Assembly: GCA_025210675.1 (NCBI GenBank)
Contig: JAOARU010000016.1
Coordinates: 1 to 45,827 of the forward strand
DNA: 45,827 nt
Source: Candidatus Altimarinota bacterium
GTDB taxonomy: Bacteria > Patescibacteriota > Gracilibacteria > CAIRYL01 > GCA-016699755
Reading direction: 5' to 3'
Position 1 is the first letter of the stretch. The number at the start of each line of letters is the position of its first letter. The notes below the pieces were generated by a model. That model was not told the origin of the DNA and did not search any database. It was given only the letters and a program-made list of their open reading frames with translations. A program made the position numbers and the translations under genes. Shown one piece after another: positions 31,206-37,853 of this stretch.

Positions 31206-31871
31206 TTAATCCTTGCGCCTAAGGATAATATAAAATATCACCAAAATCAAAACACCAATAAAAGCTAAACTAATCTGCAATAAATGTTCAACGTTTTTAT
31301 CTGATATCTCAATATCCCCTACTAAAATATTGCCCTTCATTAAGTCAGTATTGTTAAAACCATCTAATTCCTGACCGCCATAAAGCATATCAATATTGCT
31401 ATTTTTATATGTAGTGACTACCTCTGCATCCTTTGGTGCATTTTCAAAAAAATACCCCCCATTTTGATTTACATAAGCCTTATCTAGGTATTTACCATCT
31501 TTATTAACCAAAAAAACCTCTTCGTTAAAATTTTCAGCGATAGATCCATTGAGAGAATTTTGCTCTGGTATATAGATCTCTTTTTGATAGATCGCTTCAC
31601 CTTTTAAGTCATAAGCTTTCATAATCATCTTTTGACTATCTACTGACTCAAAATCATCAACACTGATGCTAAAAAATCCTCTTTCATCTGCATTTGAATT
31701 AGCAATCTCATCTTGCCCATAATACACTTTAACATTTGAATACGGCCTAATTAGACCCTGAATAGCAAGTGTGTCATCTTCTATGGTACTAAACACCTCT
31801 CTAGAGTTTGGTGCAGCTTGACAAGCCGGCAGTGAAAATAATAAAAATAAAACAAAAAAAGTCTTTTTCAT
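31206..31871 (-). CDS. Exported beta-rich membrane-anchored protein, possible lipoprotein
   Basis: 221 residues. The N-terminus MKKTFFVLFLLFSLPACQAA has an imperfect lipobox (LPAC). The middle is beta-rich, with two Ig/CNA-like repeats (LAIQGLIRPYSNVKVYYG...ADERGFFSISV; LNGSIAENFNEEVFLVNKDG...QNGGYFFENAP). A transmembrane helix (SLAFIGVLILVIFYIILRRKD) ends the protein. It overlaps the 534-aa gene by ATGA and is the last gene of a three-gene operon. It probably faces outward as part of an envelope assembly. Confidence 0.75.
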   Translation of the reverse strand: MKKTFFVLFLLFSLPACQAAPNSREVFSTIEDDTLAIQGLIRPYSNVKVYYGQDEIANSNADERGFFSISVDDFESVDSQKMIMKAYDLKGEAIYQKEIYIPEQNSLNGSIAENFNEEVFLVNKDGKYLDKAYVNQNGGYFFENAPKDAEVVTTYKNSNIDMLYGGQELDGFNNTDLMKGNILVGDIEISDKNVEHLLQISLAFIGVLILVIFYIILRRKD

Positions 31872-33472
31872 TGAAGAAATAAAGGTTTTTCAATAGGGGC
31901 TTCAATATGTGTACCTGACTGGACATTTTCAACACCCAGCTCTGTCTCAATTCTACGAATATGATAGAGCTTATCCTTTGGCACAAAAAAGTAAAAAAGT
32001 CCATCTTTGTCAGCAATAGTCGTCTCTATTGTATGTAAAGATGAATCCTCAAGAAAAACTTTACTATTTGGCTTTGCTGTACCATAAACATTAGGAGTAA
32101 TCGCTATATCAAAATGCTGATAATCAATCAATGTAAAGCCATCTCCATTGTAGATATCTCTGTACGGCATACCTTCAAAATCAGTATCCAAAGTGAAATT
32201 GTCATCACCTTCAACACTTAAAGTATAAACGCCATTTAATGCGTCAAAAGAATAAAATCCGTCGTCGTCCGTACTGTCGTCCATGGAAATAGTTAGCAAA
32301 TTATTTTTCTCTTGGGTTTTTCCTTTCAGCAATACTTTAGCCTGAATGGGTTCTTTTGTCCAGACATTAAAAACTGTTCCATAAATTGATTTTTGCCTAG
32401 GATAAAAGCCATTTAAAAATATTTTTTGATCCGACTTACAAGTATTATTTACTCCTAAATAAAATCCTGATCCGCTCACACTCCGCCTTTCATCTTCATA
32501 TTTAGCCACAATTGAGTAAAAAGACGCCAAAGGATTAAGAATAAAAGCACTATTAGCAATAAGGCTGAACTCACCTTCTCTATTTGAAAAGACACAAACT
32601 TCATCAAGTGAATTTTCTGTTTTTATACGCCTTAAATCATCATATTCTATTTCGCTATTTTCTATAAAAATCTCATTTCCACCTTTATAGTTTTCAGCTG
32701 TTACATAATACACATTTCCATTGACCTGATTTTTCTCAAAAAGAGCAATGTGCAAAGTAGAATCACCCTCTATATCTAAGATAACCTTTTGCTTATTGTA
32801 ATCATTTAAATTTGCCTCATATTTACGTGAATACCTTGAATCAGGCAAAACCCCCTTATTAAATAGATAAGGCAACTCAGGATCATTTTCAAAATTATAC
32901 CAGATTTCATACCCAACAAAATCACTCACATTTATAAGCTTAGAATCAATCTCAAGAGCTTCACCTTCAAGCCTACACATAAATTTATACTCATATTCGC
33001 CTAATACAAAAGGAGCATTAACTGAAAACTGAGGATAATAAAAATCATGCTGCTGAATATTATATTTAATCTTGTTAAGCTCCTCTCCCATTAAATCCCA
33101 ATAACACTCAAAATCCTCTTTAAATTGATATATTTTAACAGGAGGCAGATTTATAAGTGACTCACGGGTCACAATTTCGCCATTTAAATTAGCTCTTTTT
33201 TGCCAACTTAAAACTAAGTTAGCATTTTCAAAATTAGCTGAAAAATCCTTAATCAAATGTGGAATTACAGATTTAACACTGATTTTATTTTCTATAAATG
33301 ACTTGGATATACCCTTAATCGTAAAATTATTTTTCGATTTATCAAAAAAAGACCTCTTGCTAATTGAAAGAAGCTCACTCGGCGATGGATCAATAATATG
33401 CGCATAAAAACAGTCCGCACTAACAAGAGAAAAACCCAAAAAGAAAGCTATCAAAGCAGCAATTTTTCTCAT
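31868..33472 (-). CDS. Large secreted beta-sandwich surface protein (534 aa)
   Basis: A signal peptide (MRKIAALIAFFLGFSLVSA-DC) precedes ~515 residues rich in aromatic and acidic residues and predicted beta. Near 365-430 there is a carboxypeptidase-regulatory-like fold (IYGTVFNVWTKEPIQAKV then DDGFYSFDALNGVYTLSVEG); near 450-510 a second such domain (NVYGTAKPNSKVFLED ... DKDGLFYFFVPKDK). The N-terminal half has paired Cys and is not recognised. No anchor is visible. It overlaps the VirB2-like gene upstream and the 221-aa gene downstream by 4 nt each, so the three proteins are likely made together. Confidence 0.75.
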   Translation of the reverse strand: MRKIAALIAFFLGFSLVSADCFYAHIIDPSPSELLSISKRSFFDKSKNNFTIKGISKSFIENKISVKSVIPHLIKDFSANFENANLVLSWQKRANLNGEIVTRESLINLPPVKIYQFKEDFECYWDLMGEELNKIKYNIQQHDFYYPQFSVNAPFVLGEYEYKFMCRLEGEALEIDSKLINVSDFVGYEIWYNFENDPELPYLFNKGVLPDSRYSRKYEANLNDYNKQKVILDIEGDSTLHIALFEKNQVNGNVYYVTAENYKGGNEIFIENSEIEYDDLRRIKTENSLDEVCVFSNREGEFSLIANSAFILNPLASFYSIVAKYEDERRSVSGSGFYLGVNNTCKSDQKIFLNGFYPRQKSIYGTVFNVWTKEPIQAKVLLKGKTQEKNNLLTISMDDSTDDDGFYSFDALNGVYTLSVEGDDNFTLDTDFEGMPYRDIYNGDGFTLIDYQHFDIAITPNVYGTAKPNSKVFLEDSSLHTIETTIADKDGLFYFFVPKDKLYHIRRIETELGVENVQSGTHIEAPIEKPLFLQ

Positions 33473-37100: not shown

Positions 37101-37853
37101 ACAGGAGCTAATGATCCCACAGGCACAAGCTCGGGCGAATCAGGAACAGGATATAAAATCTCAAATCAGCCAACAACAAAAGATATAAGCAAAGGCACAC
37201 ATGCAACCTTTGTTGATGAATCAATAGCAATGTGGAATGCCACAAATCCAAGTGGAACAGAAAAGCTAGTTCAAAGCATCTCAAGAGCTGGAAATAGACT
37301 CACAACTGTTAGGCTCATGTTTAGAATACCTATTGGAACAGATACTCCAAGCGGGGGCGATCCTGATCAAAAAATAGCCCAATGGAAAATTACAGGACTT
37401 GACATAGCAGGCAATAAAAAAACCCTAGTCTCAACAGAGAAATGTAAATTTGAAGGAGGAAGCTCAATTTGTATTAAAGATATGCTAGACAACATCGGAG
37501 CACCAGCAGGATACCTACAACAAGAACTAGCTAATCCAACAGGAATTAATGAATTAAATCAAGAACAAAGCGCAAAAGACTTCTTAAATGGACTTCTATA
37601 TCCTAAAGTAGAATTTAACTACGGAAAAACACCAATTTTTGGAGGAAAAGCCTATCCAAAAATTCAAACAAAAGTAAAATTTGAACTAAGCCAAGCAGTC
37701 CAATCATCTGACAAAGACATACTTTTTGTGCCAAATGAAGCAATCAATATTAAAACAGAAGGTATTTCACAAGGCGTAAAACAAAGAATGAGCATTAAAA
37801 TATACCCAGGACAACTAGCACCAGTATTTGATTATGCTGTATTCCAAGAATAA
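34143..37853 (+). CDS. Giant Cys-rich secreted protein (1236 aa) with DUF4215-type repeats
   Basis: A signal peptide (MKNKKLRLALISLCSFVLLTGFFQYAKAA, given here as its parts MKNKKLRLALI and LLTGFFQYAKAA) precedes a mature protein rich in Cys, Asn, Thr and Ser. The N-terminal ~200 residues look like beta sandwich; the middle has many paired Cys. Two repeats starting at ~677 (CGNGMVESELGEVCDAG) and ~834 (CGNGIKETGEECDLG) match the CGNGxxExGExCDxG pattern of DUF4215/Myxococcus cysteine-rich repeats. A Gly/Ser/Thr linker (~976-1003) separates a Cys-poor beta domain at the C-terminus. No anchor is seen. It is divergent from the VirB2-like operon and has a strong terminator. Likely a surface or adhesion protein stabilised by disulfides; function unknown. 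Confidence 0.8.
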   Translation: MKNKKLRLALISLCSFVLLTGFFQYAKAADQISIPNTSMIFDSSGGTAELNVKIKENNGTEVTNTMFRIDKIEQDGVVITRNSYYKPVGYEMPTVHYTSPIKGNQEFSITVKISGISGHSNIETSKVFTAKIPQDGYFVLHSPNKEQKIKNKFITIGASGLKSYEYKNLSSDHIDLILRLPSGGIPVAGRLCSGSSCDLDALSRLGNGNLGSFNSLTDKTGNIAKIKVPFELRCADGYKKDSQGNCLACNSQNVQESDKCCILTEKSNDDKRIAKFDSISNKMICGVYDQSSTLNCPETQKPVGATWSGYAWNLTNPAFCTTCDDYEKGCCSDPNQIVITKNIKGVSTKTCTDPATFKIGKINTNDIKIESEDQSGTLNISMCIFKNLDERKACNDYPSLFEPIGTRELKAGNVNVITFTDDNLNEIKQKSGWTNCSIIVDPNDSNNQHIQCVVAKDDFVGFKIKYNYELAGGIFDPMEQECLYVPDAPNLPKGNLLVSGTSYTCEMKTNIKKSSACPIEPYSNPIASGSSKSDLSDILKLDKYKNRIFKDAAGNMKTEFRFITNGPSAANCTQPAVIKALKDPTASTEEWITLNQGNMTLGAISYGTGENRELKDATLNKKENYYTLTISDNSCSLDQFLNYDSPKIIKVKSCLSDDEQSCTSPTELALKPSECPCGNGMVESELGEVCDAGRSGNSNNKSGCNKTCKLEDIQSPGSCGTMPTSYGVQTANILSSQFRGKCTTWNNGNQKCSNWKQCIFEENSNNPGEYSCNWINVGIYNSGNAPFSAHVWRNVEKLPDTKAKETSCGFRCDTSNGEVWDPVQKTCSKNTQVCGNGIKETGEECDLGQVIGYECGYGLSQCFNGEIGSACSADCKLKSFTQSCDEKAILPQGAMFCSSSTNNKCLGPKTIVKNSIEQTIDGTCSDGFQTVTSNHTSSCPITNIANQCLWTCLEGYTLQDGKCTREAADLGNTEENEGAGGSTGGSTGANDPTGTSSGESGTGYKISNQPTTKDISKGTHATFVDESIAMWNATNPSGTEKLVQSISRAGNRLTTVRLMFRIPIGTDTPSGGDPDQKIAQWKITGLDIAGNKKTLVSTEKCKFEGGSSICIKDMLDNIGAPAGYLQQELANPTGINELNQEQSAKDFLNGLLYPKVEFNYGKTPIFGGKAYPKIQTKVKFELSQAVQSSDKDILFVPNEAINIKTEGISQGVKQRMSIKIYPGQLAPVFDYAVFQE

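What the first reader, a model, noticed from the sequence alone, without database searches (positions are those of the whole stretch)
31206..37853. Unknown envelope locus: duplicated pilin-like protein, two beta surface proteins, giant Cys-rich protein
Three overlapping genes (VirB2-like, 534-aa, 221-aa anchored) face a 1236-aa disulfide-rich secreted protein across 116 bp. All four are exported and none has a known function. This is a good candidate for an undescribed surface or attachment apparatus of an epibiont.
Basis: inference. Interest (0 to 1): 0.6.

Follow-up and report, generated by a model that had tools for sequence, protein, structure and literature searches.

The report
Secretion-pilus operon beside displaced pilus adhesin
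In an ultrasmall bacterium of a group thought to live attached to other microbes, a three-gene operon that looks like part of a type IV secretion pilus lies next to a giant cysteine-rich secreted protein whose end matches the missing half of the cell's own type IV pilus protein PilX, which points to two testable contact machines rather than one unknown one.

Summary
In detail: four intact exported ORFs at the stated coordinates, ATGA overlaps within the operon, a 116-bp divergent gap. They are not one wholly unknown apparatus. The 185-aa protein is a tandem VirB2-type pilin (Pfam T4SS_pilin, 72.6 bits, cut-off 26.6). Across 353 genomes of the class, this double-pilin family is strong in 19; a TrbL/VirB6 subfamily is strong in 18, all among those 19. 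In 15 of 16 carriers from two families the two genes are neighbours on one strand. In the only other genome that has them, homologues of the 534- and 221-aa proteins sit directly upstream of that VirB6 gene. So the operon most likely supplies pilin and surface parts of a VirB2/VirB6 (type IV secretion-like) machine. The giant belongs elsewhere: a PilX profile built without it matches its last ~160 residues, while the genome's own PilX gene, in the minor-pilin operon, is only a 158-aa stem that ends before the missing part. I infer that the giant is a detached type IV pilus head or adhesin. Functions are inferred, none shown. Four-gene linkage is not conserved. Verdict: new variant of known kinds, with an unusual split PilX.

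The parts
33469..34026 (-). Tandem VirB2-type pilin, 185 aa, two T4SS_pilin hairpins; first gene of the operon
   Evidence: T4SS_pilin 72.6 bits (cut-off 26.6), TrbC 35.5 (cut-off 27.9); two stretches; family alignment A2; four helices
31868..33472 (-). 534-aa secreted protein with beta-domain hits, second gene; homologue and paralogue lie beside VirB6 in G002
   Evidence: CarboxypepD_reg 20.4 bits, below cut-off 32.3; homologue L047 5559-7985, found in 2 of 353 genomes
31206..31871 (-). 221-aa Ig-like protein with C-terminal membrane anchor, third gene
   Evidence: Big_6 26.2 bits, just below cut-off 27.6; membrane segment 198-216; homologue L047 7882-8778 with a like anchor
34027..34142 (.). 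116-bp divergent intergenic region; possible shared control region (inference)
   Evidence: the promoter scan found no more sites in the region than shuffles give
34143..37853 (+). Giant 1236-aa Sec-type secreted Cys-rich protein (55 Cys); candidate detached type IV pilus head
   Evidence: no Pfam match; two weak TIGR02232 stretches; Cys positions
37263..37850 (+). PilX-like C-terminal domain of the giant, about residues 1041-1236 (profile match 1074-1235)
   Evidence: PilX profiles built without it: E=4.8e-10 in the genome search, hhalign E=1e-8, hmmsearch 1.4e-11 with none of 200 shuffles listed

Best explanation
The locus holds parts of two contact machines. (1) The minus-strand operon encodes a tandem VirB2-type pilin plus a secreted and a membrane-anchored beta-domain protein. 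They most likely work with the genome's VirB6-like protein (gene split over contigs C31/C4) and its VirB4-type ATPase in a type IV secretion-like machine: the double pilin assembles on the VirB6 platform, and the two beta proteins are exposed parts that stabilise the fibre or touch the partner cell, in the place taken by adhesins in Gram-positive conjugation systems or by VirB5 at pilus tips. (2) The divergent giant is most likely the detached head of the type IV pilus minor pilin PilX: exported by Sec, it docks by its PilX C-terminal domain on the 158-aa PilX stem made from the minor-pilin operon and presents its Cys-rich ectodomain as a pilus-tip adhesin, a role like that of PilY1. Shown: homologies, operon structure, co-occurrence, synteny, complementary halves. 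Inferred: assembly, docking, adhesion.
For: Pilin family over curated cut-offs. Double pilin strong in 19 of 353 genomes, VirB6 subfamily strong in 18, all within the 19 (Fisher p about 3e-29 without phylogenetic correction). The two genes are neighbours on one strand in 15 of 16 carriers of families f10/f12. All 7 VirB6 members match TrbL. 534/221 homologues directly upstream of VirB6 in G002. VirB4-type ATPase in the genome, coupling-type ATPase. PilX profile without the giant hits it at E=4.8e-10 and hits a separate 158-aa stem at E=7e-19 in the same genome; the matched parts do not overlap.
Against: In this genome pilin, VirB6 and VirB4 lie on different contigs. The 534/221-pilin operon is seen only here, and the 534/221-VirB6 order in one genome only. 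VirB4 is near-universal in the class, so it is not specific support. The giant has no pilin helix and lies outside the minor-pilin operon. Docking rests on homology only; no complex was modelled. The genome is a draft, so a rearrangement or assembly origin of the giant/PilX junction is not excluded.
Confidence: 0.5

Rival explanations
1. One four-gene apparatus: pilin, both beta proteins and giant assemble together as a single undescribed attachment organelle.
For: The divergent genes are 116 bp apart and could share regulation; all four look exported.
Against: No relative links the giant to the operon; the conserved partner of the double pilin is VirB6; the giant's kin are PilX minor pilins.
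Confidence: 0.1
2. The operon is a T4SS pilin gene followed by two general envelope proteins that became co-transcribed with it; the beta proteins serve cell-surface architecture and are not part of a pilus or secretion machine.
For: The beta proteins are rare (2 of 353 genomes) while pilin and VirB6 occur without them in most carriers; their domain hits are generic and below cut-off.
Against: In two families of the order the pair is next to a part of the same co-occurring module, once the pilin and once VirB6; the genes overlap by ATGA.
Confidence: 0.2
3. The giant's PilX-like end is a relic of a rearrangement (or an assembly join) that broke pilX; the giant is a secreted protein with a function unrelated to pili and the stem is a decayed gene.
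For: The stem ends one base from a convergent mscS-like gene, as a deletion or rearrangement point would look; the giant/PilX combination is unique to this genome; G002 also has a short PilX.
Against: Both halves are open and keep family residues, including the Trp, the Cys pair and the terminal motif; neither junction is at a contig end, so an assembly origin would need two errors; GC3 is even along the giant.
Confidence: 0.25

Closest known systems
Patescibacterial type IV secretion system with VirB2-like pilin arrays (PMC12102498, PMC12857230)
   Same: VirB2-like pilins of the same Pfam family, VirB4-type and coupling ATPases, a VirB6-like protein, monoderm organism
   Different: Two pilin hairpins fused in one chain, a VirB6 subfamily found in a class where the survey reports VirB6 absent or scarce, and a linked pair of surface proteins; genes dispersed here
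PilX minor pilins with expanded C-terminal domains in Saccharibacteria (PMC12206443)
   Same: PilX-type protein carrying a large extracellular part, proposed pilus adhesin of an episymbiont
   Different: There one chain; here the stem and the C-terminal domain are on separate genes and the latter is fused to a ~1,000-aa Cys-rich ectodomain with a Sec-type signal
PilY1 tip adhesin (PMC7541494)
   Same: Secreted protein of similar size proposed to sit with minor pilins at the pilus tip
   Different: No Pfam domain of any kind found in the giant; not in the minor-pilin operon; link is through a PilX domain instead
Gram-positive conjugation adhesins such as PrgB (PMC12857230)
   Same: Role only: anchored surface protein encoded with T4SS parts
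   Different: No adhesin-domain match for the 534- or 221-aa protein; no LPxTG seen; resemblance inferred

Membership tests
VirB2 / T4SS_pilin (185-aa protein) | Score above the curated family cut-off | tested here: met
   T4SS_pilin 72.6 vs 26.6; TrbC 35.5 vs 27.9; all 9 family members match T4SS_pilin
VirB2 / T4SS_pilin (185-aa protein) | Polymerises into a pilus | not testable with these tools
   needs biochemistry or microscopy
Patescibacterial T4SS | VirB4-type ATPase in the genome | tested here: met
   P-loop_TraG over cut-off on G000:C29, and in 57 of 60 relatives
Patescibacterial T4SS | VirB6-like platform protein that goes with the pilin | tested here: met
   A1 family: strong in 18 genomes, all among the 19 with the double pilin; TrbL matches in 7 of 7, one above cut-off at full length
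Patescibacterial T4SS | Pilin gene close to virB4 | tested here: not met
   No VirB4 among the window's ORFs; VirB4 lies on another contig, C29
Patescibacterial T4SS | VirB3, VirB8 and relaxase status | not tested
PilX minor pilin (giant) | N-terminal pilin helix | tested here: not met
   N-terminus reads as a Sec-type signal; PilX profiles match only residues 1074-1235
PilX minor pilin (giant) | PilX C-terminal domain | tested here: met
   E=4.8e-10 and 1.4e-11 with profiles lacking the giant
PilX minor pilin (giant) | Encoded with PilV/PilW | tested here: not met
   the gene beside PilW on C60 is the separate 158-aa stem
PilY1 (giant) | PilY1 beta-propeller or vWA domain by Pfam | tested here: not met
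   no Pfam family up to E=1
PilY1 (giant) | Tip location with minor pilins | not testable with these tools
   needs experiments
CarboxypepD_reg / Big_6 (534 and 221 aa) | Score above curated cut-off | tested here: not met
   20.4 vs 32.3 and 26.2 vs 27.6 bits

The most novel reading that the evidence does not exclude
A two-piece PilX: the minor pilin of the type IV pilus is naturally divided into a short stem (PilV-PilW-PilX operon) and a separately Sec-exported 1236-aa Cys-rich head whose PilX C-terminal domain completes the fold on the stem, so that the pilus-tip adhesin is a detachable module, possibly expressed together with a double-pilin VirB2/VirB6 secretion machine from the shared 116-bp intergenic region.
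Probability: 0.3. Interest if true: 0.75.

Novelty: new variant of a known kind. Interest (0 to 1): 0.5.

Why it matters
How Patescibacteria recognise and hold partner cells is largely open; type IV pili and a T4SS are main suspects. A recent survey found no PrgB-type adhesin for the Patescibacterial T4SS and VirB6 absent or scarce in Gracilibacteria (PMC12102498). Here is a VirB6 subfamily in that class that occurs together with a fused double pilin, two candidate surface proteins that travel with it, and a minor pilin whose head appears to have moved to its own gene. Each is a concrete, testable candidate for host contact.

Tried and rejected
A single four-gene apparatus: rejected on lack of linkage. 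Relatives of the giant's N-terminal ~1,000 residues: only a short repeat match (residues 677-719) in 60 relatives, nothing in viral contigs or PDB sequences. Structure of the 534-aa protein: pLDDT 40, not used. Fold search of the pilin model: no match at E<=0.001. PDB profile hits of the pilin to adrenergic receptors: taken as hydrophobic-helix noise. Homology of the 534-aa protein to large proteins beside VirB6 in G001 and G018: none by hhalign. Naming the organism through genome contigs with the pilin gave nothing; the VirB6 query named relatives as Ca. Peregrinibacteria, Gracilibacteria or Patescibacteria. Plasmid origin: no plasmid hit for the pilin.

Full report
OBSERVATION. The window (G000:C58, one of 64 contigs of a 982-kb, 99.8%-complete genome) holds the four ORFs exactly as described. 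The three minus-strand genes overlap by ATGA at both junctions, and the giant starts 116 bp away on the other strand. Named carriers of the linked VirB6 family are Ca. Peregrinibacteria, Gracilibacteria or unnamed Patescibacteria, so the organism is a Patescibacterium of that class; no closer name was obtained.

THE PILIN. The 185-aa protein matches Pfam T4SS_pilin (72.6 bits, cut-off 26.6) and TrbC/VirB2 (35.5, cut-off 27.9), with two separate T4SS_pilin stretches in the frame. AlphaFold2 gives two helical hairpins at moderate confidence (pLDDT 66). Such pilins are common here: 16 matches in this genome and 10-25 in each of ten relatives. What marks this one is a specific family with the motif T.LGEV..FGE.IS.IW before the first hairpin and a KP-containing linker between the two.

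ITS PARTNER. A first look at relatives showed this double pilin directly after a 670-830-aa polytopic protein. All seven aligned members of that protein family match TrbL/VirB6 (best E 2.9e-10), and the one scanned at full length from family f10 passes the curated cut-off (29.3 vs 25.9 bits). Across 353 genomes of the class, the double-pilin profile has 19 matches at E<=1e-56 and then drops to about 1e-25. The VirB6 profile has 18 matches of at least 62 bits, all in those 19 genomes; the 19th, G344, has its pilin 154 bp from a contig start. Fisher's p is about 3e-29. It is not corrected for phylogeny, but carriers fall in four families, and in two of those families the genomes that lack one also lack the other (G003-G008; G348, G351, G352). 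In 15 of the 16 carriers of families f10 and f12 the two genes are on one strand within about 1.1 kb. In the window's order (G000, G001, G002) they are separate. In this genome the VirB6 gene is cut by a contig break: N-terminal 335 aa on C31, C-terminal 443 aa on C4.

THE TWO BETA PROTEINS. The 534-aa family is found in only two of 353 genomes, G000 and G002. In G002, of another family in the same order, the order on one strand is a 922-aa relative of the 534-aa protein, its 808-aa homologue, a 298-aa homologue of the 221-aa protein with a like C-terminal anchor, then the VirB6-like gene of 1173 aa. So the pair joins the pilin here and VirB6 there: two members of one co-occurring module. Domain hits (CarboxypepD_reg, Big_6) are below curated cut-offs, so 'beta-domain, Ig-like' is a weak-profile statement. 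The genome also has a VirB4-type ATPase on C29 and a coupling-type ATPase on C4. VirB4 is in 57 of 60 relatives, so it is background, not specific evidence.

THE GIANT. No Pfam family matches it; two weak stretches match the CGNG..GE.CD repeat TIGR02232. Its last 115 residues match the end of a protein in G001 (26% identity) that lies in a run of minor-pilin genes (PilW-like neighbour with N_methyl). Proteins with the same end in other genomes begin with a PilX-type pilin helix. A profile of five PilX proteins, not including the giant, then found two separate places in this genome: the N-terminal third at C60:3301-3732 (E=7e-19) and the C-terminal part at the end of the giant (E=4.8e-10). On C60 the gene after PilV and PilW is a 158-aa ORF that stops one base from a convergent mscS-like gene; it covers PilX profile columns 3-149 (hhalign E=3e-13). 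The giant covers columns 252-409 (E=1e-8); in a fragment alignment it joins from the strand 'SF..TFRVP' on, soon after the point where the stem ends. A second profile from nine PilX proteins without this genome gives 3.5e-22 for the stem and 1.4e-11 for the giant; none of 200 shuffled giants is listed. G002's PilX is also short (185 aa), but no giant was found there.

MECHANISM. Most likely the operon provides the fibre and exposed surface parts of a VirB2/VirB6 machine, and the giant provides a type IV pilus head that docks on the PilX stem. Homology, operon structure, co-occurrence and synteny are shown; assembly, docking, adhesion and any shared regulation across the 116-bp gap are inferred. 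I give about 0.65 to the first part, 0.5 to the second, and about 0.5 to the account as a whole.

COMPARISON. A 2025 survey describes VirB4, VirB2 arrays and other T4SS parts across Patescibacteria, reports no PrgB-type adhesin, and finds VirB6 absent or scarce in Gracilibacteria, suggesting divergence (PMC12102498). The VirB6 subfamily here fits that suggestion. In Saccharibacteria TM7x, PilX1 and PilX2 carry extra C-terminal domains, and loss of pilX2 about halves early host binding (PMC12206443). PilY1 with minor pilins primes and tips pili in Myxococcus (PMC7541494, abstract). The fused double pilin, the attached beta-protein pair and the divided PilX were not found described in the searches made, which cover open papers only.

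LIMITS. One draft genome, no reads, and only one same-family genome. Signal peptides were judged by eye and hydropathy, not by a dedicated predictor.

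Noticed in passing
L060 1-1005(-) (G000:C31) and L059 3-1334(+) (G000:C4): The genome's VirB6-like gene runs off two contig ends, so its true neighbours are unknown. Its family occurs in a class for which a published survey reports VirB6 absent or scarce; weak hits (18-28 bits) of the same profile to 640-890-aa proteins in many other genomes suggest a wider divergent VirB6 family.
   Followed up: partly
L050 2465-7642(-) (G000:C51): A 1725-aa protein starts with one T4SS_pilin hairpin and continues into Gly-Ser-Asn/Asp repeats and PKD-like repeats. Pilin hits inside ORFs of 1300-1700 aa recur across the class: pilin hairpins fused to giant surface proteins.
   Followed up: no
L051 2543-4519(-) (G000:C40): Two adjacent proteins of 306 and 287 aa each carry two or three T4SS_pilin matches, so fused pilin repeats also occur outside the double-pilin family.
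   Followed up: no
L097 5494-6150(+) (G002:C51): The short PilX of G002 stops at TAG; in frame behind it follows CNDGINNDADALVDYPDDTECSDANDNDENS and another stop, so it too lacks the PilX C-terminal domain.
   Followed up: partly
L039-L045 and L038, second and third genes after the double pilin: Conserved order VirB6, double pilin, single pilin with CxDGSxADPxxGC-like start, third pilin with DxDxDG (calcium-loop-like) start, in families f10 and f12. In f10 large secreted proteins with dockerin-like ends are transcribed away from VirB6.
   Followed up: no
window 16301-22606(-): 2101-aa bacterial alpha-2-macroglobulin with Big_5, MG2, bait-region and MG10 domains above cut-off.
   Followed up: no
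window 26678-30702(+): PurE-like gene followed by a run of histidine-biosynthesis-like genes (apparent HisB fusion, HisH, HisA, HisF, HisIE) in a 1-Mb genome; identities read from sequence only.
   Followed up: no
window 42459-43115(-): 218-aa protein with three S-layer homology domains (106 bits), and a pilin-free surface protein pair at 282-2403(-).
   Followed up: no
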